Source: Calliopum simillimum (lineage: Eukaryota; Arthropoda; Insecta; Diptera; Lauxaniidae). Taken from it: a DNA stretch of 64,000 nt. Positions within the stretch are counted from its first letter, which is position 1. The number at the start of each line of letters is the position of its first letter. Below are positions 2,450-58,608 of the stretch, in pieces. The stretch is from contig OX638369.1 of assembly GCA_951812925.1 (NCBI GenBank), positions 55,688,373 to 55,752,372 on the forward strand, in the 5' to 3' direction. Both the position numbers and the translations under genes were made by a program. The notes beneath the pieces are model-generated. The model was given only the letters and a program-made list of their open reading frames with translations, had not been told where the DNA came from and did no database searches.

Positions 2450-3210
2450 AAAAACTAGTAAGGGTGTAACATTTGGCCTGGTTAAACATTAAATACCCTA
2501 CACTGCAGTATCTTGAAAATTTTGCTCATATGGGAGGTGCCACGTACTCTTGTTCGAGTTCACCCATTTTTTGCTCAGAGCTTGCATTTATAATTCTTAG
2601 TGTCTGAGTAAAATTAATTTCGATTATCTCAAAAAACGCTTTAGTATAGAGATTTGAAGCTGTTGCTTCTATTTTAAGTATAAAATTTCACCGTTTTTGT
2701 TGAGAGCTTGCATTTATAGTTTGAGTAAAATTTAGTTTGATAATCTGAAAAAAAGCTTTCGGTATCGCATTTTGAAGCTTTTGCTTATATGGGAGGTGCC
2801 ACGCCTTCTTGTTTGAGTCCACCCAGTTTTTGCTCAGAGCTTGCGCTCATAATTTGTAATATTTATGTATATTTTGGTGTCATTGTCGTGAAAAATACTC
2901 CTAAAGTTGCATTTTCAATATATTTTTTGGATGGGCGGTAGGCGTGTGCGTTGACCGATATCGCTCATTTTCAATCCCGCTAGCTAACTTTGACGACGGA
3001 GGCAGTTTCATTGCATTATCTTGCTTAGTTTTCCCAAAAAATGTTTTCCACGCACAGCCACCCAGACAGACGGATATGGCTATATCGAATCAGGAGGTGA
3101 CGCTGAGCAAGAATATATATACTTTTCTATATGTGCCACACCTCCTTCTCTGCGTTACAACGGAAGAACAAAGTGAATATACCCTGGGTGTAGGGTATAA
3201 AAACCACAAG
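2450..3210 (+). repeat. Interspersed repeat F1, copy 1
   Basis: It starts near AACTAGTAAGGGTGTAAC, then TTTGGCCTGG...ATACCCTACAC. Next are three degenerate internal units of about 130-250 bp, each containing TATGGGAGGTGCCACGC, GCTCAGAGCTTGC and ATTATCTCAAAAAACGC. The end has CAGACAGACGGATATGGC and ATACCCTGGGTGTAGGGTAT. The same organisation is seen at 4700-5335 (inverted) and 15095-17765. It is a non-coding fly-type repeat with a conserved tail; the class is not assigned. Confidence 0.7.
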
Positions 3211-3216
3211 TCTGAA

Positions 3217-4690
3217 AGCATTTTTGATCAATCGTGTTCAAGCAGACTAAGATTTTTGAATTGTTTTATTATGTCTGGAATATTTGGATTATAAAATGGC
3301 GATCCGACATTCTTTTTTGGGCATTTTTGTTTTCACAAATCAATTTTATTGTTTTATGATTTCGTTGATGTTTATAAAAGAGGTAGTACTACTGTGCACC
3401 AGAGTGTGTATGAATACCAGAATAAATAAAAATATACTGTTAATACACTTTATACTTGAATTTCTTAATTTTAATTAAATTTTAATTAAAATTATAAATT
3501 TTTAAACTCCTCAACATGATCTCCTGTTGAGAACAAAAAGTAAATACAAATTAGTCAAAGGATTAACCACCATCCTTACGTAATGATTTAATCAGTTCAT
3601 CCAAATTAACTTTCCATTATGCGTGTATATAACCCCTTTCGGTTAAAAAGTTGGTAACAAAATAATGTACATAATTAATTAAAATATTTTCTCAAAATCG
3701 AATAAAAAAAAATTAATTTTCCATCAAAATTTATACGACCACATTTCAACTTGACTTAAGTACAGCACGCTGCCGAATTCCCACTGCTACGCATAACTTT
3801 TCCGATGTACGTGTTGTTTAAATTAATTCCCACTCAATTACAACAATTTTTTTCACAACTTTTCCATTCGCGAATATAAACCAAAAAAAAAAAAAATGTT
3901 CTTCATTCTACCCACATATTTTAAAACAAAACCACAATGAAAATTACCATTTAACCGCTACGTTAAACTTTTAAGTCTCAACGGCAACATTGCTGCTGTC
4001 AGTGTTGCCATACCGTGCTGCTTGCTATTGTGCGTGTATCTATTGTTTAATGTGTTGAGTTAAGGAAAACTTTTTACAACAATTTGTGTGTCAAAATTAA
4101 ATCAAAACCCATTCCCATTGCCTTTTTAGCGATGCTTCCTGTCAAAGCGTCTTCACAGCACAGACGCCTAAAAGTATGCTTTTAATTTGTTCAAGTATGA
4201 ACAGCAGCAATAAGCTCGCGCTGTTTTTTCGAGGTGCGTTGTCTACAAATTAATTACTTAATCATGAACGGGTTCAAAAGTAGAAACTCAAATAAATCTT
4301 TGTTGTTGGTTGGTTAAAATTACGAAATTTTATTTCTTCACGTTTAAGTACAACCAGCCAGCACCAGCAGAAAGGTAAATAAAAGTCATTGCTCACTTTT
4401 AATGAGCGCATTCGTCTTTTTTTGTTATAAATATCAAGGTTATGTTGACATGTCTACTTATGTGAAATTGGTTCTTAAGTACATGTGTGCGAAGTTTTCC
4501 TTAATTTTATATGCGTATGTACGTACCGTCATAAAACTATGAGTTGAGTAATGGTCTCTTAATTTCATATTATTGTAAGTGAAGTTGTTAAGGAGTTGTC
4601 CATAAAAGGCGTCCTCAAAAATGCAATCAAATTGAAAACTTTCGCACGATTATCTGATTTCATTGGAATTTTATAACCAAGAAACTACAT
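3217..4690. other. Stretch without recognised gene
   Basis: AT-rich sequence with many short A/T tracts. Bases 3955-4380 are somewhat richer in GC and contain CACCAGCAGAAAG|GTAAAT, which could be an untranslated exon donor, but no coding partner is visible. Small ORFs at 2944-3478 overlap the F1 tail and look fortuitous. Confidence 0.4.
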
Positions 4691-4699
4691 AATTTTTTT

Positions 4700-5330
4700 T
4701 ATACCCTACACCCAGGGTCTATTCACTTTGTCCTTCCGTTTGTAACGCAGAGAAGGAGGCTTGGCAGATATAGAAAAGAATATATAAACGAGACACGCCT
4801 ACCGCCCATACAAAAAATGTATTCAAAATGCATCCTTGGGAGTATTTTTCACGACAATGCAACCAAAATACACATTAATACCAAGAATTGTAAGCGCAAG
4901 CTCTAAACAAAAAACTTCAAAACGCTATACTGAAAGCGTTTTTTGAGATAATCAAACTAAATTTTACTCCGACACTAAAAACTATAAATGCAAGCTCTGA
5001 GTATAAACTGGGTGAAATCGGAAAAGAGGGCGTGGCACCTCCCATATAAGCAAAAGTTTCAAAATGCTTTACTGAAAGAGTTTTCGAGATAATCCAATTA
5101 AATTTCACTGAAATACTAAATAAGCAAAAGGTTCAAAACGCTACACTGAAAAAGTTTTTTGAGATAATCCAACAAAATTTCACTCAGACACTAAGAACTA
5201 TAAACGCAAGCTCTGAGCAAAAACTGGATGAAATCGGACAAGAGTGCGTGGCACCTCCCATATACGCAAATACTTCAAAATATTGCAGTGTAGGGCACTT
5301 AATGTTTGGCCAGGCCAAAGATTGCACCCT
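4700..5330 (-). repeat. Interspersed repeat F1, copy 2 (inverted)
   Basis: On the minus strand this repeats the F1 layout: TGCACCCTT...GGCCTGGCC at the head, four units with GGGAGGTGCCACGC and CTCAGAGCTTGC, and the tail ACCCTGGGTGTAGGGTAT at 4700-4720. The deletion-mariner at 5333 sits directly at its head, apparently inserted into the TA of the CCCTTACTAG head sequence. Confidence 0.7.
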
Positions 5331-5332
5331 TA

Positions 5333-6073
5333 CGTGGGCTGCTATATACATTTCTGGCCTAGGCAACTTTAATGTCAATAGCTAAAATCTGGCAACACCA
5401 TAATAAAGTTTGACATTTTTTAGCATAAAAGTACTCACAACGTTTTGGTGTACAAGTGCTATTTGTTTTGTTTACAGTGAGTTAAGAAAATTAATTTTTT
5501 CATTGATAATTTAAGCGATTGATAAATTATTGGGTTTCCAACGAGAACAAACGTTTTTTACAACTAAGTGTTCATGCAAAATCGTATGTATTGAAGTGGA
5601 ACTTATGCCCAAGAATGCCTCTATCTCACGGTATGTCACATGACGATCTTGCATTATCAGTTCACGCACGGCATCAAGATTCTCTGGCACAACGGACGTT
5701 ATTGGATGACCTTCACGGAATTCGTCTTTGTGCGAGCGTCGGCCACGATTGAATTCATCAAATAAGTTTTTCATAGTACTATAGAATGGTGCTTCATCGC
5801 CATACAAAGATTTAAGTTCATCGATGCATTCTTCTCGTGATAATCCACGTCGAAAGTTGTGAAAAATAATCGCACGAAAATGTTCACGAGTTAATTCCAT
5901 TTTTTTGCCAAATTGATTTTTTCAAGTTACTGTAAACAACACCAATGATGGTCGTACGTCAAAACGTTGTGAGTACGTTTATGCTAAAAATGTCTAGATT
6001 TATTATGGTTTTGCCAGATTTTAGCTATTGACATTAAAGTTGCCTAGGCCAGAAACATATACAGCAGCATACG
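5333..6073 (-). mobile_element. Non-autonomous mariner deletion derivative, copy 1
   Basis: 741 bp bounded by TA on both sides. Terminal inverted repeats of about 130 bp run from CGTGGGCTGC...TTTCTGGCCTAGGCAAC through AGCATAAA.GTACTCACAACG. Between them is only the N-terminal third of a transposase (minus strand, 5900-5511). Long TIRs plus an internal deletion make it a MITE-like derivative of a mariner. The sister copy is at 21527-22247. Confidence 0.88.
5511..5900 (-). pseudogene. Truncated mariner transposase, N-terminal DNA-binding part only
   Basis: 129 residues beginning MELTREHFRAIIFHNFRRGL. They comprise the paired helix-turn-helix DNA-binding region of mariner transposases (FRRGLSREECIDELKSLYGD; later VTYREIEAFLGISSTSIHTI). 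The frame ends at NNLSIA and stop, right at the inner end of the right TIR, so the linker and the DD34D catalytic domain are absent. It could bind TIR DNA but cannot catalyse transposition. The last segment matches where the WVPHELT-type motif lies in intact family members. Confidence 0.85.
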
Positions 6074-6183
6074 TACTAGTTTTATTTCTTTTTTTTATGT
6101 TTAAAAAATAGTTGCTCGATTCTTTCCTTCCTTGTCAATTCTGAAAAATAATCTCTTTAATATACAGACAGCACAAGCACTCG

Positions 6184-7029
6184 CCAAAAATTTTACACGT
6201 ATTTCTTGAACGATTCTAAGCATTTTATGCCTAGTACACTTTTTTCGTAAGATGCCTTCCTCTTAAGTAAACAAAGAGTTTTGCCTGCCGTGGGCGTTCA
6301 AAAGCCAAAAACTCTCATCTAGCAACCGAATCCCATGTTGAGTCATACATCATTTTAAAGCTTATAAATTATGCTTTCATTTAAAGTGCTTTTAAAAAAA
6401 ATTAAAGGGGTTTTTTCAAAAAAAATTTAAAAGTATTTTTAAGTTTAAAAAATGTTGGTGAAACAATTTTTTTTACCAAATAATATTTTTTTATAAGAAG
6501 AACACTTAAACATGAATGGGACCAGTTGCTTAGATATATCAATTTACAACCTTTGGTGTAAGCTATAAACTTTTTAAAAAACACTCTTTTCATGAAAATG
6601 ACTAAAAACGCCAACTTCAACACCCTGTATTTTAACAACAAATGGTACTAGAACCAAATCCTTCCGGATTATTGTTCTTGCACACCGGATCTACCATATT
6701 GCCAAATTTGAGCAGAGGCAAAAGAATTTTCAGCTGGTACACTTGACGTGTTTTGCTTCATATATAAGTAACTGGCCCTATTAATTTTGTTATTATTTTA
6801 TTATTTATTTTAAAGTACTTAAAATTAAAGCATATTTTATAAGCTTTAAAATTATGACTCAAGATGGGATTCGGTAACTACAAGAGAGTTTTTAGCTTTT
6901 GAACGCTCGCGGCAGGCAAAACTCTTTTTTTACTCAAGAGGAAGGCATCTTACGAAAAAAGTTAGACATAAAATGCTTCGAATCGTCCAAGAAATACGTG
7001 TGAAATTTTCTTCTAACAAATTTTTGGCC
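6184..7029. repeat. Foldback repeat with arms of about 210 bp
   Basis: The left arm 6184-6395 (GCCAAAAATTTTACACGTAT ... TTTAAAGTGCTTTTAAA) is inverted at 6808-7029 with roughly 85 % identity by eye. The centre of about 400 bp is AT-rich. Arm fragments also occur at 18.8-19.5 kb and at 43.50-43.63 kb. No ORF of note. Confidence 0.7.
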
Positions 7030-29566: not shown

Positions 29567-30860
29567 AGGAGTGAAATCGAAAAAATCTTAACACACGTTT
29601 TATCTAATAATTTTTTTTGGGTGTAAAATTTAAAAATTTCTTTGATCTAGATATCTTTGAAAAATATGTCAGTTATTATTTTTAATGACAAACATGTTGA
29701 TTTGTTGTGAGTTTGATCAAAATGAGTGAAGAAAAAGAAGTACGTCTCAAAATTATTAAAAATTTTCAAAAAAATCCAAATTGGACCTACAAAAAATTGG
29801 CCAAAGAATTGAAGGTCTGCCGTCAAACTGTTTCTAATGTTATTAAATAGTTTCAGGAGAATTTTACCATCGATGGGAAACCTTGTTCAGGAAGAAAACA
29901 AGGACCACATGATAGTGGGAAAGCCAAGAAAATTTAAAGCATATTGAATAGATCTCCAAACACATTAGCTAGAAAAGCTGCCCGGTTAGCACAGTGCTCT
30001 GACTATTTGGTGCGAAAAGTTAAAGCCAATGCAGCTTTGAAAACATACAAAGTCCAAAAAGTTCCATGAATGCTGCAAAAAATTTAATCGCCAAAAGTAG
30101 GGCTCGGAAATTATAATCGAATTTCATACAAAAATATTCATGATGTATAATGGACGACGAAACGTATGTACTGGCTGATTTTACGCAGCCTCCGGGTCAA
30201 AATTTTTATGTTGCTGATGCTCGAGGAAATGTCGAAGAACAATTTAAAATCCAAAAGCAGACAAAATTTCCTAAAAAATTCCTGGTATGGCAAGCTATAT
30301 GCAGTTGCGGCAAAAGAAGCAAGTCATTTGTTACAGTGGGTTCTATAAATACCGAAATATACATCAAAGAATGTTTGAAAAAAAGACTTATTCCTTTTAT
30401 AAGAGAGCACAATGTGTCCACATATTTTTGGCCTGATTTGGCATCATGTCACTACAGCAAGAAAGCTCTGGAGTGGTACCAAAGTAATAACATAGTTTTT
30501 GTACCAAGAGAGGCCAATCCTCCAAATTATCCGGAGCTAAGACCAGTGGAGAGATATTGGGGTCTTGTGAAAAGAAACTTAAAGAGCACAAAAAAGGTGT
30601 CCCAAAATATCGAAGATTTTAAAAGGAGATGGGCAAACTGTTCCAAAAAGGTGTCTGAAACAACTATCAAATCTCTAATGGAAGGCTTACCAAAAAATGT
30701 CCACGAGTTCATAAATAGTGGTTAGAACTATAAAAGTTATATTTTTCTGTAATTTGTAAAATACTATCAATTAAATAAAAAAAAAAATCAAAACTCTAAG
30801 ATCAACCGTTTAAAAACTATTGAATTTTACATATGTTAAGATTTTTTCGATCTCACTCCT
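29567..30860 (+). mobile_element. Full-length ITmD37E (DD37E) transposon, inactive
   Basis: 1,294 bp between TA dinucleotides. Termini AGGAGTGAAATCGAAAAAAT and, inverted, AGGAGTGAGATCGAAAAAAT; the TIR is about 27 bp. It contains one interrupted transposase frame (29722-30725). Length, TA target and catalytic spacing all fit the ITmD37E branch of Tc1/mariner. Confidence 0.88.
29722..30725 (+). pseudogene. DD37E transposase with stops and a frameshift
   Basis: ATG at 29722 opens MSEEKEVRLKIIKNFQKNPN and an HTH (NWTYKKLAKELKVCRQTVSNVIK), then TAG at 29848. More stops follow at about 29935 and 30067, and a frame change before 30150. From 30150 a 191-residue frame holds the catalytic core: MDDETYV (first Asp), WPDLASCHY (second Asp) and PELRPVERYWG (Glu). 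Exactly 37 residues lie between the second Asp and the Glu, hence DD37E. The C-terminal half is uninterrupted and ends HEFINSG. It is inactive because the DNA-binding half is broken. Confidence 0.87.
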
Positions 30861-32837: not shown

Positions 32838-34084
32838 ACAAGTCATTCGATAAGCCCGTAGGATAAGTAAGAAAAATCAAAATTTTGACAAAACTCGATT
32901 TTATTATTCAACATAGTTGCCTTCGAGGGCGATACAACGAATATAGCGATTTTCCAACTTTTCGTTACCACTTTTACAGTACGATTTCTCTTTCTCGTCG
33001 TGAGATTACTTCATCATTGGACTTAAATTTCTTTCCAGCAAGCATTCTCTTGAGATCTGAAAACAGGATAAAGTCACTGCGTGCTAAATCTGGAGAATAC
33101 GGTGGGTGGGTAAGCAATTCGAAGCCCAATTCATTCAATATTGCCATAGTTTTCATCGATTTGTGACACGGTGCATTGTCTTGGTGAAACAACACTTTTT
33201 TCTTTTGCAAATGTGGCCGTTTCTTTGCGATTTCAGCCTTTAACCGATCCAAAAGTGCACAGTAATAGTCGCTGTTGATGGTGGTTCCTTTTTGGAGATA
33301 GTCGACGAATATTATTCCCTTCGCATCCCAAAATACAGACGCCCTCACCTTACTGGATTCGTTTCGACGACTGCTGTCTACTCAGCTGAGTGTATTTTGG
33401 ATTTTGGTGTGTAATAGTGAAGCCATGTGTCATCTATTGTCACATATCGACAATAAAATTCGATTTTATTGCGGCTTAACAGCGCCAAACACTCCTCTGA
33501 AGCATCAATTCGTTGTTGTTTTTTGGTCTACTGTGAGCTCATGCGGCAGCCACTTTGCACATAGCTTTTGCATATTCAAACGTTCATGTAAAATGGTAAA
33601 AATACTACCATCTGATATCTTTACAATGTCAGCTAGCTCGTGCACCTTCAATTTGCGATCGTTCATAACCAATTTGTGGATTTTTTTATGTTTTCTGGAA
33701 TAACAGCCTCATTTGAGCGTCAACTGCGCTCTGCATCATTTGTGCTGGTACAACCACGTTTAAATTCAGCAATCCACTTTTCTACCATTTGTCTCGATGG
33801 AGCAGGGTTCAGATAAGGTTTATCAAGCCATTGTTTGGTTTCCACTGTATTTTTTTTCATCAAAAAGTAATGCTTTATCAAAGCTCGAAATTTACTTTTT
33901 TCTATTTTTATTTCACTTACAAAAGTTGCTTTACACAAAATGCTATAACTCACGAATCAATAGTCAGATTGCTGTCAAATTTATACACGTATCGTTTGAA
34001 GGTTAGTACTAAATAAAAATTATATGGAAAAAATTCTACTAAAGCCATCTATGTGTCATCCTACGAACTTATTGAATGACCTGT
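32838..34084 (-). mobile_element. Full-length mariner, inactive
   Basis: 1,247 bp between TA dinucleotides. Termini ACAAGTCATTCGATAAG (32838) and, inverted, ACAGGTCATTCAATAAG (34084), followed by C(C/T)CGTAGGAT on the left and TTCGTAGGAT on the right. Length and TIR are normal for mariner. Confidence 0.88.
32974..33953 (-). pseudogene. mariner (DD34D) transposase with frameshifts
   Basis: Starting near 33953: SKFRALIKHYFLMKKNTVET (HTH region), SRQMVEKWIAEFKRG, then after a frame change NIKKIHKLVMNDRKLKVHELADIV. The catalytic half is open from 33348 to 32974 with VLFHQDNAPCH and HPPYSPDLARSDF; 34 residues separate the two Asp, giving DD34D, though the usual PSD is RSD. At least two frame changes and several stops, so it is inactive. 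Confidence 0.83.
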
Positions 34085-47051: not shown

Positions 47052-50000
47052 CTAAATCAAGTGATGATATAGATTTGATAAATTTAATAAAGGTTTAAAA
47101 AAAAACGTTTTCATAAAATATTAAAAGAGAAGTCTTTGAATTAAATGAATAAATGTTTTTAAAAAATTAGCAACAGTTTATAAACAAAAATATAACAAAG
47201 ATTTAGAATTTCTTAAAGAAAAAAAAAAATTTATTTAAAAAGACATTTCTCTATCTAGGGTTTTAAATATTTCATTAAACGCCCAAGTTTTGGGCATTAT
47301 TTCATAAATGATTATCGTCCAAAATTTATACAAAAATAACTTGGGCGTTATTTCATTCGACGTTATTTCCTACTGCCCACAGCAGCTACAGCCAAACTTA
47401 ATTAACTCTTACTTAAAAGATAGGCAGTAGGAAATATCACACAAAATAAAAACGAAATAACGCCCATATTTTTAACGAAATAACGTCCAATGTGGACTTT
47501 CTTAATTTTTGGCCGTTATTTCAGGCGTAAGGAAATAACGCCCAAAAACGAAATGAAATAACGCCCAAATTATTTGCAAATAAATTTGGGCGATTGGGTT
47601 TAAAAAAAAACTAAATAACGCCTAAAAAATAAAAAAACCTAAAACCGCCCAAAATAAAAAGGAAATAACGCCCAAAAAATATGAAATAACGCTCTAACAC
47701 AAAATAACGCCAATATAATGCCCAATAAAAACGAAATTACGTCCAAAAAATAAAAAAACTGCGTTAGGAAATAACGCCCAAAATAAAAACGAAATAACGC
47801 CCAAAATATGTAGGCGTTAGGAAATAACGCCCAAGGAAATAACGCCCAAAAAAAAAACAAAATAATTTGGGCGATAATCATTTTGGAAATAACGCCCAAA
47901 AATTTGGGCTTTATTTCGTTTTTTTTTGGGCGTTATTTCCTTTTTTTTTTAAAAAAACGAAATAACGCCCAAAAAAAATGAAATAACGCCCAAAAAATAA
48001 AATGACGTAATAACGCCCAAAATAAAAAACGAAATAACGCCCAAAAATATGAAATAACGCCCAAAATCAAAAACGAAATAACGCCCAAATTATGTTCATA
48101 TAAATTTTGGCGATAATCATTTTGGAAATAACGCCCAAAATTTATTTGTATGAAAATAATTTGGGCGTTATTTCGTTTTTCGTTTTTAGGCGTTATTTCA
48201 TTTTTTAAAAATAAAACGAAATAACGCCCAAAAAAACGAAATAAAGCCCAAATTTTTGGGCGTTATTTCCAAAATGATTATCGCCCAAATTTATATGAAA
48301 ATAATTTGGGCGTTATTTCGTTTTTGTTTTTGGGCGTTATTTCATATTTTTTGGGCGTTATTTCGTTTTTTATTTTGGGCGTTATTACGTCATTTTATTT
48401 TTGGGCGTTATTTCGTTTTTTTTTTGGGCGTTATTTCCTAACGCCAAATATGTATATGAAATACGCCCAAAAATATGAAACATCGATCAAAAACAAAAAC
48501 GAAATAACGCCCAAATTATTTTCATATAAATTTGGGAGATAATCATTTTGGAAATAACGCCCAAAATTTATTTATATGAAAATAATTTGGGCGTTATTTC
48601 TTTTTTTTTTTTTTTTGGGCGTTAGTTCCAAAATGATTATCGCCAAAATTTATATGAAAATAATTTGGGCGTTATTTCGTTTTTGTTTTTGAGCATTTTT
48701 TCATATTTTTTGGGCATTATTTCCTTTTTATTTTGTGCGTTTTTTTATTTTTGGGCGTTATTTCGTTCTCATTGGACATTATTTCGTTTTTTTTTTTTTT
48801 AATCCAATCGCTCAAATTTATAAAAAAATAATTTTAGTGTTATTTCTTTGTTGTTGGGAGTTATTTAATTTTTTGGGCGTTATGACGTCTTTTTGTTTTT
48901 GGCATTTATTGTTTTTAAGAAATAATGCCCACAAAAAAACGAAAAAAAGCCCAAAAAAAAAAACAATAATATTATTTTCATATAAATGAATTCCAAATCC
49001 GTTATTTTTTTTTTTTAATTTTCAGTGGGCGTTATTTCCTAACTCAAATTTTTTTATAACATGAACCAAATCGAACGGCATTGACGATAGTTTTTATTAT
49101 CAATTCTATAACTTGCAGTCTTGATAATTAAAATTTCTATGAGCATAAAGTTAATTTGAGTTATCAAGTTTGACCGTACTTTTAAAAACTATTATAGAAC
49201 ACGTTAATTCATAAAAGAAACATAAGGTATAATTCCTTTCTTAAAATAAAAGTGCATATTGATGAGTAATTTTCTATTCTATAAAAGCTTCGAAAAATAT
49301 TCTTTTTTAATATATTTAAGCACTGTAAAAGGATATAAAGTGGGAAAAGTTCTTTTATGTGAGGGAAAGTCTTGAAGACCTTAATTTATCGCTTAATAAC
49401 TCACACAAGCACAAAAGCAAAAAAGAAATTAAAATATACGCATTTGTAAAACTCTCCAAGAGAAAGGTTAGCGAAAAGTCTAAAAAAAAAACTCGTTTGC
49501 CAATTTTATTAAATTACTTTAAATGATATGAAATTTGGAAAGCGGGATATAAAATCAAACTGCATGCATATTAATTGTATCGAAATAATAAGCTTAAACC
49601 TATATACGTACGATTTTATTATTGTTTTAAGAGCATTTTTACGCTCTCTCTCGATAAACCAATCAATTAAGTGACCTGCCATAAGTGGTGCCGTTTTATA
49701 CAACTGAAACAGTTTACAATAGTTACCCAAAGCCCATGCCGAACGGAATTCCAATGCATGAGCAACAATGGTGTTTTCACGTTGCGTTTGTGTCAGTGAA
49801 CGCAAGACAGTTGTTGTGTCTAAAATGAAACATCACAAAATATTTTATAACAGTTTTACTTTGTTAGTTGTACTTGATAAGCCGATGTTAATTACTACTT
49901 ACCCAAGGTATTTTTTGTAAATATATAATACAAAATACGATATGCGGTGAATTCCAAAGTATTCGAACTACTGCCCACTTCTGTATAAAGCATTTTCAAT

Positions 50001-53000
50001 TGAGTTTGACACTGATTAAATTCTTCATGATCACCCTTTTCCATAGCAATGCGAGCATGTGTTTCATAAACTTCAACAGTGAAATTATCGCGAATACCTT
50101 GGACCTACAAGAAAATTAAAAAAACATAAACATAAAAAATAAGTTTTAATTTAAACAAAAATAAGTTATATTGCTATACGTACCGTCAAATCCTGTCTTA
50201 TTGACTTCAACTGATCACAAGCATAAAAATAATCCTGATTATCACGCCACTTTTGTTTTACATTTTGCAATGAATGTGTCAACACCTCGATTGGCCGCAC
50301 TTCTGATGGTGATGGTGCTTTTGTTAAGCGCAAGAATGACTTTTCTAAATCCCTACATGTGCCTACTATATGTAAATCTAACAATTCTAAGCCTGCATCA
50401 CCCGCTACGCCCAAACCATCATCGATGAATAAACGAGAATTGTTTAATTTTTTATGTTTTTTCTGTGACGATGATGTCGCCGACGCTGCTGCATTTGAAA
50501 ATGGCGAAGAAGCTACAGCCACAACAGATTTTTTAGAACCACCTTGACTAAAACGTGCTGCACGTTGCTGTAAGCGTTGCGAATCATCATCGATTGCACC
50601 GCCTATTGAACTTGCATAAAATGCTGCTTTCGAGGATGACGCAGTGGAAAGGTTATTCGACGAAGAGGAAGAGTTTTTGGAATTTTTGCCTTTCTTATTT
50701 AATTTTGTTGGTTTTTTGCTAGAATTGAAAGAAATAAAATTTTCAGAAGATCGACGATCAGATGATTCTGAACTGCTGCTACGACGTTGTTTCCGTCTTG
50801 GACTGCCAGAGGAACTACGTGAACGCGAGCTACGTTTATTGTGTTTTGATGACGGTGAACTGAAAGAAAGAAAACAAAAATAAAATTTTATAGATTCCTA
50901 AAGTTACTTATGCTTACGTTCCCTAAAGAGATATAACTTACTACAGAAGTAAAATTAGGAAACATAAAACTCTCTAAATTACAAAACATGGAGTTAGCTT
51001 TGCGTGTGCAAATTAGATTTAATGATTATTAACTTGGAACAACCACACGTCTTTATGTAAAACCTTAAGAATTTTATAAGATCACCCAGAAACCATAAGT
51101 TTTTTGCAAGTACATATTCTCGGAAGTTAACCCCCTAGGAAGCCGAAAAACGAATGTGAAATATTACGACCATTCTTCTATGGATTAAGAAAGGCCATTA
51201 TGGTTATGTTAATGATGACCTAGCAGAAAAGGTTATAAATGGTGACCCATACATCTTGCAAGATTTGAATGTGCCACCATCAGTGCTATCAAAAACAGTT
51301 TGACTGTTGACAGTTTAGGGTAAGTAATGGATTATAGGAGGATATTCAACGCTGTATCAAATTCAACCCCATTTATGCAAAATGAACATGGAAATTTTCG
51401 ACAAGAGGGCGTTATAAGGGGTTTTCCTTCTTGTTTTGGTAGAACCCCAAAAGGAAGAAATAGAGAGTAAGTTCAGGGATAATGTTTTGAGGAAAAAAGG
51501 GATGGAAGTCAGGAGTCACTTTTTGTAAATGTAATTTTTGCAAGGAAGCAGCCCTAAGGGCACGGTGCTCGTGAGCGGGGTTTACACTAACATGATCGGT
51601 CTCTCGAAAATTCTTGTGGGGTTCAAATATATTTATAGTACTTAAACATCATTTTAAGCGCAAAATAAAAAAAATCCAGTAGTTTTACCTGGAAATTTTT
51701 GCGGGATTTTCGCAAATGAGTTATTTTATAGAATTCGATATGCTCTTTCAGAATTTCAACTTTGCTACCTCGAGTCGTGTTCGCTCGCGCCGCCATATTG
51801 GAAAAATGTTTTTTACAAATATCTCTTTAACGGTTACATTTAGAGAAAAAGTACCTGGAGACCGATCCCTGCTCGGTCAACAATCTGATCTTATTATTTT
51901 AGTCGATGTTTTTATTCATAGCTATTTTTTGTTATGAAACTCGTACCTTTTCACCCCCAATGCTTTCAAAATGATAAATTAACCGATGAGAAAAATAATA
52001 AGAAAAAACTCGGAAAATATCGAATGGTATAGAAAAATATCAAGAACTCCAAATTTTTAAGAGAAATAGAATGACTTAAAATAAATAAATGGGATACGCC
52101 ACGCACCCGAAATATTTCGTCTTTTGTATGGGGGCTGAAATATCGTATCATCATGCCTCGGAAAGATCATTCCATTTTTTTTTGTGCATGAGTTATTAAC
52201 TAAAATTTTTATTTTGGAAAAAAGTGGGCGTGGCAATTAATGAACAAAGCCCACTTTTCGTTATGCTTTAGATACTCGTGATCCAGATCCGCATACCAAA
52301 TTTCATCAAAATATGTTGTACCATTTGCGTTAAATAGCATTTAATTTGTTTCACTTGTATGGGAGGTTCCACGCCCACCTGCGATATTTTGCCCACTTTC
52401 AGCTCGTAGGTGCCTCATAAAAAGAAGATTCCCTACATTTAAACTCAGAAAGATTGCTTTAGTACTTTTCTTTTTATAGCGTATTAAATTTTTGTGGGCG
52501 GTGCCACGCCCTCCAACGAGTTTTCCTAATAAAACGGCATATCACATATTAGTACTTGTTTTCAGGGGAAAAATATTTTAAATTTTCATTAAAATTGTTG
52601 AATTCGTTTTCGAGTAATATTGAATTAAAATTTTCAATGGTTAAAAAAGGGGCGTGGCACTTCTTAGATACCGCCCACTTTTCGGTTATTGCAAGGCATT
52701 GATAAGTAGTACCTACATACCAAATTTCATTAAAATATCTTGTAAGATTTGCGAGAAATAGCATTTAACGTATTTTGCTTGTATGGGAGGTTCCACGCGC
52801 AATGGCGACATTTCGCCCATTTTCAAATCAGAGATGCCCTATTGCAATTAGGCTCCTCACAGTTAATTTCAGAATGTTTGCTTTATTGGTTCTCTTTTTA
52901 TACCGTTTTATATTTTTGTAGGCGGTGCCACGCCCTTCAACGAGTTTTCCCAATATAACGGCACATCACGTATGAATCCCTGTTTTCAGAGGTAATATCT

Positions 53001-56000
53001 CCTAAATTTTCATAAAAATTGTTGGAGTCGTTTTCGAGTAATATTGAATCAAAATTTTCAAGGGCTGAAAAGTGGGCGTGGCACTTCTTCGATCCCGCTC
53101 ACTTTTTTTCTGTTACAAGGCAATATTAAGCCGTATCCGCTGACCAAATTTCGTCCAAATACCTTGTATGGTTTGTGAGTTATGACTAAATCAAATTTAA
53201 AATTTAGTGCAGTGCCACGCCCTCTGGTGAGCATTTACAAAGTTCAAACCTAGCTCATTCTTCATTGTTTGCTAATACCTAACACTATTCCAAGTTTCAT
53301 TGAAATCGCTGTAGCCGTTTTCGAGAAGAAATATTGGCACAGAAATAAGTACAAAAAAACAAAAAAACATACAATTTTAGCTCCTATAAGAAGAGAAGAT
53401 ATTGTGGCGCAATATTGTAGCTTTCTATAAAAATTACGTCTTAATTGTTTTCGTACGACTTATAACTCAGGATATCCTAATTCAAAATTTGAAAAAAATT
53501 AGTAAATTGTGCATGCCGCTTATGAGTAGGCACAGTGATGTGTTGAGCTTAAAATTACAATAACTCATGAACGGTGAGTCACACGTTCAAAGTAAAAAAT
53601 CCTCTTTATAGGGAACTACTTCTACTATAAGCTTCATTTTATATTTTTTTTCACATGACCTATAGTTTACGAGATATTTTATCAACAAACCTAAAATTTA
53701 GAACAAAACCGTTTTTTCAAAATGTAAACGTTAACGTGTTGATTTGCATTAACGTAAAAATAACCGTTTAGAAAATATTCGATAAAATGAAATTTTTCGA
53801 CTTTTTGCGGATTTTTAAGAACGGTTATTTTTTCGTGGTTACCGGACATAATCCCCACTTCGTAAATGGGGATTATGTCCGAAAATTTTTTGGTCATAGT
53901 CCCAACGGACATAATCCCCACTTCGTAAATGGGGATTATGACCGAAAAATTTTGGTCATGGGGGTTATGTCCGCAAATTTTCCAAAAATTCCAATACCGT
54001 TTTCGCGGCGGCCTTCAGCCGCTGATCAGTCTATAATATATCCAACACCTAGTTTGCTAGCCACAGTAATTTTACATAAGAGTAGGGGTAAATGGGCGGC
54101 CGCAGCTTAGGATTTAAAACTCCCATAAATTCAACACCGGCTTCATGGGGGTTATGTCCGCAAATTTTTTGGACGTAATCCCAATAGGGGTTATGTCCGA
54201 AAAATTGAATAAAGATTGAACAAAATTTTTGCAATAAAAAATTTAAAAAATTAATGTAGTGTTGGATGTCATAAACTGATCCGCGGCAGAGATGTGCACG
54301 ATGTCCATTCAAACGCTTCTATGAGACATTCGCAAAAAAACGAACCGAGAATCATCACTAGACAGCAAACGCACGAAACGAATGGAAGCACGACAGTAGA
54401 CAAAAAAATGCAATGAGCTTCGCCGACACGAAGGCAAAAAGCAATAGAGACAGTGAAAAAGGCAACGAATGTTCTGAGTTTTGCTGACACGAAGCCTAAA
54501 AGCAATAAACGCAGTGAAAAAAGTAACGAGTATTGGAAAAAGCACCACTGCATTGCATTGCGTTTTATTAAATTTTTTATGCATTATTATTAAGTTTAAA
54601 GCATTTTTTGTCTTTGGTGACCCCTCACAAAATTTGAAGTAGAATATATTTGTAAAATACATTAACCTATTACAGTCGACGTCCAATAATACGAATTATA
54701 TAATGTCAGGCCTATTCGTAAAATCGAAAAATTCGTATTATCGCAACGAAATTTTGTTCCTTTTTTCTTTTATACTGAGGTATATCGTCGGTTTAGAGAT
54801 AAAATTGATTAACTCGAATATTTTATTTGAGAGAAAACATCAGTTTACTAAAAAAATTCTATGAAAAATAGAAAATTTATGAATTTTTCTTCTAAGTAAT
54901 AAGGTGGAGAAATGAAAAACACAATATTTTGATATCAAACAAAAAATATTTGATGGAAAAAAATATGGGAATCGGAGTTTTGCCAATAAAAGAAGAAATT
55001 TGAAGTAAATACGCCAAATGTAGCAGTTAAAGAAGCATGACGTGACTGATTTGGCTAAAATTAGGCATTGTTGTATTACCGATGCCTAGCATTATCAAAG
55101 TGCTAGGACTTAGCTCTTGTACTATTTGTTGTAAATTTCTTAGAAAGACTGCTTTTTATAAACTCAAACTTTTTGTTTTCAAATTTTTCGAAAAATTTTA
55201 AATTTTTGAACAATTTTTCTAAGCCCAAATAATAAGAAAAAAGCATTTCAAAACGTTCTAAAAACTCTGACGTATTCTTTCATGCATTCTAAGCATTTAA
55301 TGCTTTGCAAAAAAGCAAAGCCTACTAAGAAAAAAATCTCATTCGTATTATCGAACCGTAAAATTTACCGCTGTTCGTATTATAGAATCACATGTGGAAG
55401 AAATATTGCATTCGTATTATTGGACATTCGTAATACGGAGCATTCGTTTTACTGGACGTCGACTGTATATCCCACTTTTCGAAAAGGGGTCAAAAAGATT
55501 CTAAAAGACAAGATATAATGGTTAAAAAATGTTTATTGTGTAATTTCATGTTTACTCTGGAGCAACATATTTTGTCCAAAATGAAGAGATTTACAGTAGG
55601 ATGAAATTTCGAAAATAAATTTTTTGCAAGTATTTAAGCCAAAAAAAACAATATCTGGTTGATTTAAGTTTCCAGATATGATTTTTTTATACCTTAGGCG
55701 AAATATTTGACATATCTCAGAGAACTCATTCCGAACTTTTTTGCGATTGTTATAAAACAAAAACTGCATCAAGCCGAGGTTTTGCATAAAACGGCGTTGA
55801 GCGACCTCTAAATGCACTTCCAAAAATTATACAATACAAAATTCTCAGCTCATTTTTTTGACATCCTCTTTCAGATTTTTGAGGGTTATTCTGTAATTAA
55901 AAAAAAAAAATGTGTCCAACATTGTAATATGAACAACAAAAACAAAAAAAGGAATTTTTCCTATTTTACATTGCATTTACTTAACTTTATCCGCAATGCA

Positions 56001-58608
56001 CGGCAAATTTTAAAGTTAACAGTAGGTTTGTACAAAACATGAGCGCTAACAGACTACTCGTTGCTTTTTCCAATATTCGTTGCTTTTTCCACTGTCTTTA
56101 TTGCTTTCGCCTTCGTGTTTGCCGAAGCTCATTGCTTTTATTTTGAGCAAGCGTTAACACTGCAGCACACTACTCGCTGCTATCGATTCTGAATGAAAGC
56201 ACGGCAAAGACAACGAATAACCGAAGAGCAAGTAAACGCGAGCTCTTCATTGGAGATCTCTGATCCGCGGTCGAAGGCCGCCGCGAAGCCGGTGTTGAAT
56301 TTATGAGAGTTTTAAATCCTAAGCTGCGGCCGCCCATTTACCCCTACTCTTAAGTAAAATTACTGTGGCTAGCAAACTAGGTGTTGGATATATTATAGAC
56401 TGATCAGCGGCTGAAGGCCGCCGCGAAAACGGTATTGGAATTTTTGGGAGTTGTAAATCCTAAGCTGCGGCTGTTGTCAATAACAAAATATCGTTATGGG
56501 GACTGTGTCCGTTTTTTGCTGGGGATTATGTCCGAAACACTTGCGGACATAATCCCCATTTTAGAAATGGGGACTATGTCCGAATTATTGGCGGACATAA
56601 TCCCATCCATTTCGTGAATGGGGATTATGTCCGTGGTTACTATTTCACGGCACCTTTTTTCGTTAATACAAATCAATACTATTTGTTGAACCTGATATTC
56701 TCCACAAAAGAGATTCTTATACTTTTTATCGTTCGACTCACCGTTTTCATCAAAAAGCCTCCCAAATGAAATCAGATTGAAATCAATCGGATTTCACGAC
56801 ATGCCTGAGTAATTTAAGATGTATTTTTAGTTTTTGCTTTCAAAACCCATTTTGAATTATGTAAATATCTTTTTCTTTGAAAATGGGGGTCGATCATACA
56901 TGTAAACCCTCTCCAGTACTTCCTAAATGGGGAAATATTGATTTAATTAACAATGGGGGTAGGGTTAGACCTGTGGTGCGAAAACCTAGGGTGATCCGAA
57001 AAAACTGACTTCATATTCGGTTTCAACGACCTCTAAATTAGTAGTTTTTTTCGCTGTTGTAAAATATAATCATTTTGGAAATAACGCCCAAACTTTTTGG
57101 GTGTTGTTTTATATTTTCTGGGAAATAACGCCCAAAATAAAAACGAAATAACGCCCAAAATTAAATAAAAATAATATGGCTGTTGGTGTGGGTCGTTCCA
57201 TTTTTCAAAATTCATTTCATGGATATTGGACAAAGGAAGTTGGGTGTTTAAAGGTTTAGCAATAGTGTGATGTTCATAACATTAAGTGTTTACTGAAAAC
57301 TTACCGTGACCTAGAATTACGATGAAATTTCTGTGAACCGCCAAATGAACCACGTTGACCCAAACGAGCATTTAACGAACGCGAAATGCCACCTTTGCCC
57401 TTGAGTTGTTGTGCATTAACACCCCCCAATGAATTTCGTTGATTCTGATGTTGCTTATGTGGCGACAACGGTTGTGGTTGCTGTTGCTGCTGCTGATGAT
57501 GCAATTGCATTTTAATGCTATTACGTTCGCTATGAACACTTGGTATGGGTTCATTATCCCAATCACGTGTCCATAGTTCATTACGATTAGCAGCAGCAAT
57601 AATTTTACCCTTAAGACAAATATCTATCTGATCTTTATCCAAATCTGTATTACATTTAGCATAACAACGAGCAACATAGTTATTAAGCGATTCAGGCCAA
57701 GCATCATTGGGGTTATGAAAAGGATTTGGTTTTTTAAAACCATTTAGTGTTTGTTGTTGCTGTGGCTCAATTGATTGCTGTAGCTGTTGTTGCTGATTTG
57801 TGTCCGCCAAATTTGTTAGTATCGGTGGTGGTGGTTTGCTAAGATCGGGTGTAAGGGACATACCGCCACCATTCAATGGTGGTGGTATGGAGGTATCAAG
57901 AAAGCCATTATTATTATTGTTATTCTGCTGCTGACCAACACCAACACTTGAGGACTCAAAATGTGCATCAAAAGCTGCCTGCTGTTGGGCATATTGTTGC
58001 TGTTGTTGTTGGTTTTGCTTATTTTTATTACGTTTGCGCTTCTTTTTGTTACTGTTCATGGCGTTGTTGTTGTTGGTGTTATTATTGTTAAGACTTACTG
58101 GCGATGCTACAGCAAATGGATTGCCAATGTTCCCATGCAATGGCTGCTGTAGAGGATTTGGTGCATTTGCTAAACTTTTACGATTTTGATTCAGATTAAA
58201 ACGTATGGGACCAAAATTTTTGCTTTGCTGCTGTTGTTGCTGCTGTGGACCTGAAATTATTGGTGGCGGTGGTGGTGGTCCTGGAGGTAGCGGTGGCATC
58301 TTTTTATCCGCTTGTGCCATCACTGCATTACTGAAACCAGGTGGAGCGTTTGAATTACAAACCGATGATGTCACACCATTTTGTTGCTGCTGCTGTTGTT
58401 GTTGTTGCATGCCATAACGCATATAGTATTGATAATACTGAGAATATTGTTGCTGATATGCTGGATTGTTGTACATTGCTGCATTCCATGCGCCCTGATA
58501 ATTACCCCACTGTGGCGCTGCTGCATTGTTGGCAGCGCCATTTCCATTTTGTTGCTGCATTTCTTGTAATTGCGGTATCAACGGCGCCGCTGCCAAGGTC
58601 TCCGACAT
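46904..58608 (-). CDS. LENG8: LENG8-family SAC3/GANP-domain protein, five coding exons, 845 aa
   Basis: Coding exons in transcript order are 58608-57305, 50859-50184, 50104-49903, 49819-49612 and 47051-46904. Every junction is GT-AG and the phases (2, 0, 1, 2) keep one open frame of 2,538 nt including TAA. The start is ATG 58608 (begins MSETLAAAP); the open frame reaches a GTG further upstream that is not a plausible fly start. Residues 1-430 are Gln/Asn/Pro-rich with polyQ tracts, a polyproline stretch and a basic KKKRKR cluster near 187. A block near the end of exon 1 with [12 protein letters not shown] and a later DWDNEPIP is typical of LENG8 homologues. Residues 420-560 are Ser/Arg-rich. 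From about residue 600 to the end lies the SAC3/GANP region ([13 protein letters not shown], then helical repeats). SAC3 proteins act in nuclear mRNA export complexes with PCID2- and DSS1-like partners; that role is inferred from the family. It is orthologous to human LENG8; I believe the Drosophila counterpart is CG6700. Confidence 0.9.
47280..49040. repeat. Array of GGGCGTTATTTCC words in both orientations (LENG8 intron 4)
   Basis: Some 50 or more near-identical copies of the 13-mer GGGCGTTATTTCC or its complement GGAAATAACGCCC, separated by 6-25 nt of A/T-rich filler. The left half (47450-48130) mostly carries GAAATAACGCCC and the right half (48150-49040) mostly GGGCGTTATTTC, so the whole folds back on itself around 48.2 kb. 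Higher-order pieces such as TAATCATTTTGGAAATAACG recur at 47876, 48117 and 48541. ORFs here are artefacts. Confidence 0.88.
49041..49500. other. Remaining LENG8 intron 4 sequence
   Basis: AT-rich intronic sequence without repeat words or conserved features. The ORF at 49805-49509 on the minus strand runs from exon 4 into this intron. Confidence 0.5.
49612..49819 (-). CDS. LENG8: LENG8 coding exon 4 (SAC3 domain)
   Basis: Acceptor ATTTTAG|AC is at 49819. The donor is AAATC|GTACGT at 49612. A second GT four bases on (TAC|GTATAT) was rejected because only the first restores KSYRP with exon 5. It encodes [11 protein letters not shown]...[14 protein letters not shown]...[17 protein letters not shown]. 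The downstream intron (49611-47052) is 2.56 kb and contains the GGGCGTTATTTC array. Confidence 0.87.
49903..50104 (-). CDS. LENG8: LENG8 coding exon 3 (SAC3 domain)
   Basis: Acceptor TTCTTGTAG|GTC and donor CTTGG|GTAAGT give a 202-nt exon, phase 0 in and phase 1 out. It encodes the helical segment containing [18 protein letters not shown], a hallmark stretch of SAC3/GANP-type domains. The flanking introns are short (79 and 83 nt), typical of flies. Confidence 0.88.
50184..50859 (-). CDS. LENG8: LENG8 coding exon 2 (Ser/Arg-rich to start of SAC3 domain)
   Basis: Acceptor TTTCTTTCAG|T is at 50860/50859 and the donor is GACG|GTACGTATAG at 50184. The first 50 residues are SR/RS-rich, followed by a poly-Ser stretch. 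A conserved block then opens the SAC3/GANP-like helical region ([20 protein letters not shown]). Intron 1, immediately upstream in transcript order, is 6.4 kb and full of repeats. Confidence 0.88.
50884..51840. other. LENG8 intron 1, proximal unique part
   Basis: Mostly unique AT-rich intron sequence. A partly GC-richer stretch 51120-51330 has no open frame of note. No gene within the intron is recognised. Confidence 0.45.
51850..53400 (+). repeat. Interspersed repeat F2, copy 3, in LENG8 intron 1
   Basis: GTACCTGGAGACCGATCCC at 51851, then CAATGCTTTCAAAATGATAA at 51959 (empty site for the 37-39 kb palindrome). Tandem units follow, marked by GTGGGCGTGGCA at about 52224 and 53072 with GGGGCGTGGCAC at 52650, spacing about 424 bp. 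The tail has GAAGAAATATTGGCACAGAAAT and CCTATAAGAAGAGAAGATATT. Antisense to the LENG8 transcript. Confidence 0.72.
53838..54210. repeat. GGACATAATCCCC hairpin array, left part
   Basis: CGGACATAATCCCCA (53843-53857) and TGGGGATTATGTCCG (53867-53881) form a perfect 15-bp stem with a 9-nt loop CTTCGTAAA. A second hairpin with the same loop is at 53906-53940. Further words GGGGGTTATGTCC and GGACGTAATCCC lie at 53960 and 54148-54200. Confidence 0.85.
54673..55465. mobile_element. pogo/Tigger-like MITE
   Basis: 793 bp with termini CAGTCGACGTCCAATAATAC and, inverted, CAGTCGACGTCCAGTAAAAC, flanked by TA on both sides. Subterminal AATTCGTATTATCG words occur near both ends. CAG-starting TIRs with TA target and internal TAATACGAA words are characteristic of pogo-like elements. 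No transposase ORF. Confidence 0.72.
56490..56640. repeat. GGACATAATCCCC hairpin array, right part
   Basis: GGGGATTATGTCCG (56521), CGGACATAATCCCCATTTTA with ATGGGGACTATGTCCG (56544-56582), and CGGACATAATCCCATCCATT with ATGGGGATTATGTCCG (56592-56634). These pair with the left array as parts of the foldback arms. Confidence 0.82.
57063..57165. repeat. Small GGGCGTTATTTC-type cluster in LENG8 intron 1
   Basis: ATAATCATTTTGGAAATAAC followed by GCCCAAACTTTTTGGGTG, GGGAAATAACGCCC, GAAATAACGCCC. The flank ATAATCATTTTGG is the same as in the intron 4 array, so this cluster is related by copying and did not arise independently. Confidence 0.8.
57305..58608 (-). CDS. LENG8: LENG8 coding exon 1 (Q/N/P-rich N terminus)
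   Basis: This exon has 434 codons plus 2 nt and ends TCACG|GTAAGT at 57305. Composition is dominated by CAG/CAA (Gln) and AAC/AAT (Asn) runs, so long antisense ORFs on the plus strand here are shadows. The segment [12 protein letters not shown] near residue 110 is a formin/WW-type polyproline ligand by composition. The conserved WPESL...DWDNEP block sits near its 3' end. The splice codon CG|T (Arg) continues into exon 2. Confidence 0.88.

What the first reader, a model, noticed from the sequence alone, without database searches (positions are those of the whole stretch)
47280..49040. Foldback array of a 13-bp word, GGGCGTTATTTCC, filling a LENG8 intron
Dozens of near-identical 12-13-bp words in both orientations are separated by variable A/T filler. 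The left half is mostly one orientation and the right half the other, so the 1.7 kb forms one large palindrome made of many small hairpins. Word identity is kept while the filler drifts. That differs from an ordinary satellite and suggests selection on the word, gene conversion between arms, or an undescribed element whose functional unit is the word. It resembles in concept the inverted repeats of Drosophila FB elements, but the word is not one I recognise.
Basis: partly seen in the sequence, partly recalled or inferred. Interest (0 to 1): 0.8.

Follow-up and report, generated by a model that had tools for sequence, protein, structure and literature searches.

The report
Nested foldback jumping genes in LENG8
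The strange palindromic word array in this fly gene's intron is one recent jumping-gene copy sitting inside an older relative; the family is scattered through the genome, appears to belong to the Mutator-like foldback kind, and offers a ready test of what such repeated words do.

Summary
The array is real: 56 copies of GGGCGTTATTTC (up to 3 mismatches) in both orientations at about 47276-49046, in the last LENG8 intron. It is a dispersed transposon, not a satellite. The exact 13-mer occurs 4394 times in the 690-Mb genome (9 in a reversed control), the terminal 22-mer 947 times (control 0). In 40 fetched loci, 22 of 42 end pairs carry 9-bp target duplications (20 exact), against 1 of 418 shifted and 3 of 1664 swapped pairs. 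A young 633-bp copy (47813-48445, duplication AAATATGTA) sits inside an older decayed relative, which explains the palindrome and its clean centre. 'Word kept, filler drifts' fails: in 19 copies words differ at 1.9% and filler at 2.0% of sites. A sister family (word TGGCGTTATTTCC) carries a MULE transposase and RING finger between such arrays, with a 9-bp duplication. Another MULE family has word GGGGATTATGTCC; a non-autonomous member lies in the same gene (53837-56654). So: non-autonomous foldback MULEs. The word is most likely a transposase-binding site (inferred). No transposase with the exact word was found.

The parts
47276..49046 (.). Whole array: young element nested in an older decayed relative, in the last LENG8 intron; outer edges approximate
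   Evidence: word positions, alignment of the joined flanks to the 19-copy majority from 47276, end-like motif ending at 49046 with 2 mismatches
47813..48445 (.). Young 633-bp non-autonomous foldback element, both ends GGCGTTAGGAAATAACGCCC
   Evidence: perfect ends, exact 9-bp duplication; 1.26% different from the nearest of the 18 other aligned copies, L047
47804..47812 (+). Left copy of the 9-bp target duplication AAATATGTA
48446..48454 (+). Right copy of the 9-bp target duplication AAATATGTA
47813..47832 (+). Left terminal motif GGCGTTAGGAAATAACGCCC of the young element
   Evidence: the 22-mer GGCGTTAGGAAATAACGCCCAA occurs 947 times in the genome
48426..48445 (-). Right terminal motif of the young element (reverse complement of the left one)
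47276..47803 (.). Left part of the older, decayed relative or relatives; end-like motifs ending at 47377 and starting at 47524 and 47760
48455..49046 (.). Right part of the older, decayed relative; eroded terminus at 49046; no target duplication found
57060..57178 (.). Short remnant of the same family in another LENG8 intron, 41 of 41 bases identical to 47767-47807 at 57121-57161; GCTGTTG repeats at its edges may be chance
53837..56654 (.). Non-autonomous element of a second foldback family (word GGGGATTATGTCC), ends GGTTACC.. and GGTGCCG..
   Evidence: exact 9-bp duplication TTTTTTCGT at 53828-53836 and 56655-56663; same outermost bases as the elements in L088 and L089
46910..57903 (-). LENG8 exon matches 57903-57307, 50630-50178, 50110-49904, 49823-49545, 47053-46910 (open frame of the first continues to about 58629)
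   Evidence: tblastn with Eupeodes and Megaselia LENG8; open frame; homologue search

Best explanation
The array is a nest of two non-autonomous foldback DNA transposons of the Mutator-like (MULE) superfamily. Shown: a dispersed family of about 670-bp near-palindromes, each made of about 25 copies of one word in both orientations, with ends GGCGTTAGGAAATAACGCC and 9-bp target duplications; a young copy (47813-48445) inserted in an older decayed copy, making the long palindrome; and sister families that carry a MULE transposase between arrays of a near-identical or related word. Inferred: a MULE transposase acts in trans, binds the word cooperatively along the arms (the many sites giving specificity to a short recognition sequence), pairs the two ends and moves the element. 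In the intron it is a passenger that adds a long hairpin to the LENG8 pre-mRNA (inferred from sequence; no transcript data).
For: 4394 exact words against 9 in the reversed control; 947 exact terminal 22-mers against 0. 22 of 42 end pairs (in 21 of 40 loci; 31 loci had a testable pair) with 9-bp duplications, 20 exact and 2 at 8 of 9; controls 1 of 418 over ten outward shifts and 3 of 1664 with flanks swapped between loci. Window copy with exact AAATATGTA; a second nest with both duplications exact, L023. Sister element L087: MULE domain E 2.3e-14, RING finger E 7.2e-11, 16 and 21 words at up to 2 mismatches on its two sides, exact duplication TCTAAAATT and ends GGCTCCCGGAAATAACGCCA. Family B (L088-L090) has the other word; the L088 MULE piece is 39% identical to that of L087 over 150 residues. 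Binding-site precedent: the THAP domain of Galileo binds sites repeated inside its long inverted repeats (PMC3688188, abstract and passages).
Against: No transposase flanked by the exact word GGGCGTTATTTCC was found in the 26 MULE loci held (about 1.5 kb on each side) or in L091, a further match; of the 24 places the other new ones were not examined. Mobilisation in trans by the L087 type is assumed. The older host element has no recognisable duplication, and 20 of 42 end pairs elsewhere have none, many of them cross-pairs in nests. Words are not clearly more conserved than filler, as a binding-site model might predict: all sites p = 0.51, but at G/C sites 59 of 2655 against 42 of 1089, p = 0.007, uncorrected. 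A 113-bp copy with only 5 words still has a 9-bp duplication (L048), so many words may be unnecessary, or were lost after insertion.
Confidence: 0.86

Rival explanations
1. A local satellite or palindrome grown in place by slippage, inverted duplication and gene conversion, without transposition.
For: Tandem stretches with 22-25-bp period; overlapping inverted blocks with several centres; word decay rises with distance from the centre (Spearman 0.44, p = 0.0006).
Against: Hundreds of dispersed termini and 9-bp duplications; the central block is an element with its own duplication, which explains the gradient.
Confidence: 0.04
2. A host element under selection: the word is a host protein's site, or the intron hairpin feeds small RNAs or regulates LENG8, and this is why it is kept.
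For: Very strong hairpin in the LENG8 sense strand (47950-48440, RNA z -35); slightly lower divergence at G/C sites of words; in one of ten inverted pairs words are better kept than filler (0 of 36 against 10 of 57 mismatches).
Against: Outer words decay. Over ten inverted pairs in the array words mismatch at 61 of 382 sites and filler at 55 of 544 (ungapped, so register slips may inflate the word count); a gapped arm alignment gave 33 of 325 against 34 of 337. The young copy is about 1% from copies elsewhere and needs no local selection.
Confidence: 0.04
3. A foldback transposon, but of the P/Galileo kind or another superfamily, with the MULE-bearing copies only look-alikes by convergence.
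For: Foldback arms recur in unrelated superfamilies, as stated in PMC3169594 (passages); no MULE gene with the exact word was found; transposases of other superfamilies were not searched for.
Against: 9-bp duplications, whereas Galileo copies are described with 7-bp ones (PMC3573991, passages); the L087 word differs by one base and its ends share the layout of a 7-bp head followed by GGAAATAACGCC.
Confidence: 0.06

Closest known systems
Tm1, Mutator/Foldback family of root-knot nematodes (PMC3169594; passages and one section read)
   Same: 8-10-bp, mostly 9-bp, duplications; a 7-bp outer motif, then GGA, then a variable number of 13-15-bp repeats; asymmetric outer motifs as in family B; MITE-like copies; MULE transposase
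   Different: Motif C is described as consecutive tandem units within each arm; here words run in both orientations through the whole element. Tm1 protein is FLYWCH + MULE; here MULE + C-terminal RING and no FLYWCH match
Drosophila Foldback (FB/NOF) and Rehavkus (Rehavkus from passages of PMC6446971; FB details recalled)
   Same: Long inverted repeats, 9-bp duplications; Rehavkus has MULE-like structure and an extra zinc finger
   Different: Rehavkus is described with a PHD finger and a minisatellite before the 3' end; here a RING finger. No sequence comparison with FB, NOF or Rehavkus was made here
Tetris of Drosophila virilis (PMC4079207; passages)
   Same: Foldback element without coding capacity, 8-10-bp duplications, variable number of repeats in the arms, transposase not found by its authors
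   Different: Its repeated unit is about 220 bp, not a 13-bp word
Galileo (P superfamily; PMC3688188, PMC3573991; abstract and passages)
   Same: Foldback-like arms with repeated transposase-binding sites shown by footprint and EMSA
   Different: P-type THAP transposase; described with 7-bp flanking duplications

Membership tests
DNA transposon family (class II, inverted-repeat type) | Dispersed copies with identical termini and fixed-length target duplications | tested here: met
   947 terminal 22-mers, control 0; 22 of 42 end pairs with 9-bp duplications, controls 1 of 418 and 3 of 1664
Foldback-type element | Long, internally repetitive inverted repeats that make up most or all of the element | tested here: met
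   about 672 bp with 25 words, near-palindromic in a 19-copy alignment
MULE superfamily | 8-10-bp, mostly 9-bp, target duplications | tested here: met
   of 20 exact 9-bp repeats none extends by a base on the left and 3 on the right
MULE superfamily | MULE (DDE) transposase encoded by the family itself | tested here: inconclusive
   found in the sister family with a one-base different word (L087) and in family B, not in a copy with the exact word
Phantom subclass | N-terminal FLYWCH zinc finger | tested here: not met
   no FLYWCH match up to E = 1 in N-terminal pieces of L087, L088, L089; these copies are broken, so sensitivity is limited
Rehavkus | PHD finger in the transposase | tested here: not met
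   the finger found is RING C3HC4 (PF13920) in L087 and L088
Rehavkus | Minisatellite before the 3' inverted repeat | not tested
   word arrays occur on both sides; no specific comparison made
Galileo / P superfamily | 7-bp duplications (as reported for Galileo) | tested here: not met
   duplications are 9 bp
Galileo / P superfamily | THAP-domain P-type transposase | not tested
   no THAP or P-element search was run
Ordinary satellite | Head-to-tail array of one unit | tested here: not met
   13 orientation runs over 56 words; dispersed units with termini

The most novel reading that the evidence does not exclude
This fly carries a radiation of foldback MULEs in which each transposase lineage is locked to its own short word, reiterated many times in its ends (TGGCGTTATTTCC, GGGGATTATGTCC, AAAATCCCGTTT, AGCGGCCAAAAA, TTGTCGGGAAAA). 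Word and DNA-binding part would have changed together, so the words are a readable record of changing transposase specificity. The elements also insert into one another more often than chance, so arrays grow by self-nesting.
Probability: 0.35. Interest if true: 0.72.

Novelty: new variant of a known kind. Interest (0 to 1): 0.55.

Why it matters
Whether the short repeats in Foldback and Phantom elements are transposase-binding sites was called untested in PMC3688188 of 2013 (passage). Here one genome offers several MULE families with differing words beside their transposase genes, and thousands of word copies. The lock-and-key idea can therefore be tested directly. The finding also shows how a puzzling intronic palindrome can arise simply by a transposon landing in its own relative.

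Tried and rejected
Satellite or slippage origin: rejected on termini and duplications. Gene conversion between arms: not needed once the nested insertion was found, not tested separately. Selection on the word: words and filler diverge alike. The arm alignment and the ungapped pairs contain register errors; I rely.

The shift control ran four settings that are only two distinct ones (20 and 30 bases outward, each twice); one search replaces it with ten shifts and swapped flanks.

Target duplication of the whole array: none found. My first reading of the neighbour's duplication as CGTGGTTAC was wrong; with the ends of L088 and L089 in hand it is TTTTTTCGT. GCTGTTG beside 57060-57178 is probably chance: about 3% of random 20 x 20 windows share a 7-mer (0.1% one as G/C-rich), I searched a larger area, and the edges are not family ends. 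An exact AAATTTGGG pair in L054 lies in filler-like sequence and is not counted.

Searches without yield: viral contigs and phages, none; prokaryote genomes, 4 loci with short local repeats that look unrelated; a translated stretch of the array (48225-48539) against proteins, none of 218 candidates; text searches for word strings, 2 and 12 papers whose titles and abstract openings show other subjects; L053 with a 1.5-kb interior but no open frame of 120 codons. The genome-wide count of GGGGATTATGTCCG did not complete.

Full report
Observation. The window holds 50 matches to GGGCGTTATTTCC at up to 2 mismatches, against 1.06 expected. At up to 3 mismatches, 56 copies of the 12-mer lie between 47292 and 49038, 27 plus and 29 minus, mostly minus in the left half and plus in the right, in 13 runs. 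The central parts that I folded (47800-48700 as DNA, 47950-48440 minus strand as RNA) are far more stable than shuffles. tblastn with two named fly LENG8 proteins puts exons at 57903-57307, 50630-50178, 50110-49904, 49823-49545 and 47053-46910 on the minus strand, so the array lies in the last intron.

Structure. Inverted blocks of 72-132 nt, 81-93% complementary among the eight longest, showed that filler is copied along with words. Scanning for the terminal motif GGCGTTAGGAAATAACGCC gave a perfect left end at 47813 and a perfect right end at 48445, bounded by AAATATGTA on both sides (repeated). This 633-bp element interrupts an older, decayed relative. Joining the flanks and comparing them with the family majority gives local matches of 66-95% identity (25 rows shown) over the older part. 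The older element's ends are eroded and no duplication was found. The nest explains the gradient of word decay from centre to edge (Spearman 0.44, p = 0.0006).

Family. In the whole genome (690,472,685 bases, 334 contigs) the exact 13-mer occurs 2186 + 2208 times; its backward control 3 + 6 times. GGCGTTAGGAAATAACGCCCAA occurs 461 + 486 times, control 0. I fetched 40 loci, all from contig C1, because only the first 100 places were listed: 20 chosen from the word listing, mostly by word clusters, and 20 from the end listing (17 chosen as facing pairs, 3 as single ends). 31 of the 40 have a testable pair of ends. Of 42 such pairs, 22 (in 21 loci) have 9-bp duplications, 20 exact and 2 at 8 of 9. 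Controls: 1 of 418 over ten outward shifts, 3 of 1664 with the left flank of one locus and the right flank of another. Of the 17 facing-pair loci, 13 qualify. Eight further loci gave duplications at family ends in three (L053, L055, L060; the last 8 of 9); a fourth, in L054, I do not count. The 22 copies run from 113 to 1355 bp, 14 of them at 595-690.

Word against filler. In an alignment of 19 near-full-length copies that I chose (593-690 bp, three without duplication), the majority is 672 bp with 25 words. Words differ from it at 100 of 5382 sites (1.9%) and filler at 139 of 6837 (2.0%), p = 0.51; at G/C sites alone words are lower (59 of 2655 against 42 of 1089, p = 0.007). The window copy is 1.26% from L047. 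Inside the array, ten ungapped inverted pairs gave 61 of 382 word and 55 of 544 filler mismatches, with one pair strongly the other way round. So the filler is inherited with the word, and strong selection on the word over filler is not seen; the G/C result is a weak, uncorrected hint.

Transposase. A Pfam MULE search of the genome gave 26 matches (only the best candidates are scored). In the stretches held (about 1.5 kb each side), one locus (L062, enlarged as L087) is flanked by words of this type at one mismatch; three (L065, L066, L068; enlarged as L088-L090) by GGGGATTATGTC words. L087 runs from 3113 to 6412 with duplication TCTAAAATT and ends GGCTCCC + GGAAATAACGCCA; its word is TGGCGTTATTTCC. 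Its frame is broken into pieces, with MULE (E 2.3e-14) and a C-terminal RING finger PF13920 (E 7.2e-11). L088 has MULE (8.9e-13) and RING (1.4e-8). The two MULE pieces are 39% identical over 150 residues. A homologue search with the L088 piece gave 8 proteins, one named, from Bactrocera latifrons. A genome search with the L087 piece gave 24 places; of those not already held I examined one (L091), which has no such words. So the partner of this family is either the L087 type acting in trans or not found.

Second family in the same gene. 53837-56654 has ends GGTTACC.. and GGTGCCG.., as have L088 and L089, and duplication TTTTTTCGT. Its word shares 10 of 13 bases with the first (120 of 200,000 shuffles do as well).

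More families. De novo counts of 10-mers in the 26 MULE loci show arrays of other words on both sides, facing each other, in L064 (AAAATCCCGTTT), L071 (AGCGGCCAAAAA) and L080 (TTGTCGGGAAAA); L063 has the L064 word in mixed order and L061 on one strand only. L064, L071 and L080 have exact 9-bp repeats at candidate ends, but many positions were scanned and no control was run. L067, L072, L075, L076 and L079 show only four or five copies of a 10-mer, and L069, L070, L073, L074, L077, L078 and L081-L086 no facing array, within the stretch held.

Mechanism. Shown: insertion with 9-bp duplications, nesting, and related families with MULE genes. Inferred: the word is the transposase's binding site. 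Support is by precedent: Galileo's THAP domain binds sites in its long repeats (PMC3688188), and long Mutator TIRs are stated to harbour transposase-binding sites (PMC3310237, abstract and passages). Against: the 113-bp copy with 5 words.

Self-nesting. Of 25 duplication-bearing copies, 4 have words within 150 bp outside, 2 of them on both sides, besides the window copy. About 470 elements of 0.67 kb would cover under 0.1% of the genome (arithmetic), so this looks enriched; but the loci were not drawn at random.

Comparison. Tm1 is nearest in layout; Rehavkus and Phantom are nearest in protein class as described in print, without a tree of mine. The RING finger, the words in both orientations throughout, and several word families in one genome are the differences. 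A C3HC4 ring finger is noted for one Phytophthora MULE in PMC6446971, and a 2026 arthropod MULE survey (PMC13359780; passages) has no occurrence of 'RING' or 'tandem' in its main text.

Noticed in passing
window 53837-56654: Second foldback family (word GGGGATTATGTCC) with 9-bp duplication TTTTTTCGT in the large LENG8 intron; ends match those of L088 and L089, which hold MULE genes
   Followed up: yes
window about 54673-55468: Inside that element, a sequence with inverted ends CAGTCGACGTCC..GGACGTCGACTG flanked by TA, perhaps a nested Tc1/pogo-type element (family recalled, not tested)
   Followed up: no
L064, L071, L080 (also L061, L063): Other MULE transposase loci with arrays of their own short words, and candidate 9-bp duplications in L064, L071 and L080, without control
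   Followed up: partly
L087 5364-5675, L088 3740-4198: C-terminal RING finger (PF13920) in two sister MULE families
   Followed up: partly
L023 380-1544 and 719-1331; L017; L020; L041: Further nests: L023 has exact 9-bp duplications for both inner and outer copy; L017, L020 and L041 have extra ends inside a duplication-bearing copy
   Followed up: partly
L053 454-2403: Copy with duplication GTTTTTCTG and a 1.5-kb interior without long open frame that looks like another inverted-repeat element
   Followed up: partly
L054 607-5702: Long open frames of 1.4 and 3.7 kb, looking like a non-LTR retrotransposon (not tested), between two word-bearing stretches
   Followed up: no
window 52292-53106: 424-bp unit repeated 1.9 times, 81% matches
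   Followed up: no
window 5511-5900, 30150-30725, 32974-33348: Mariner/Tc1-type transposase fragments
   Followed up: no
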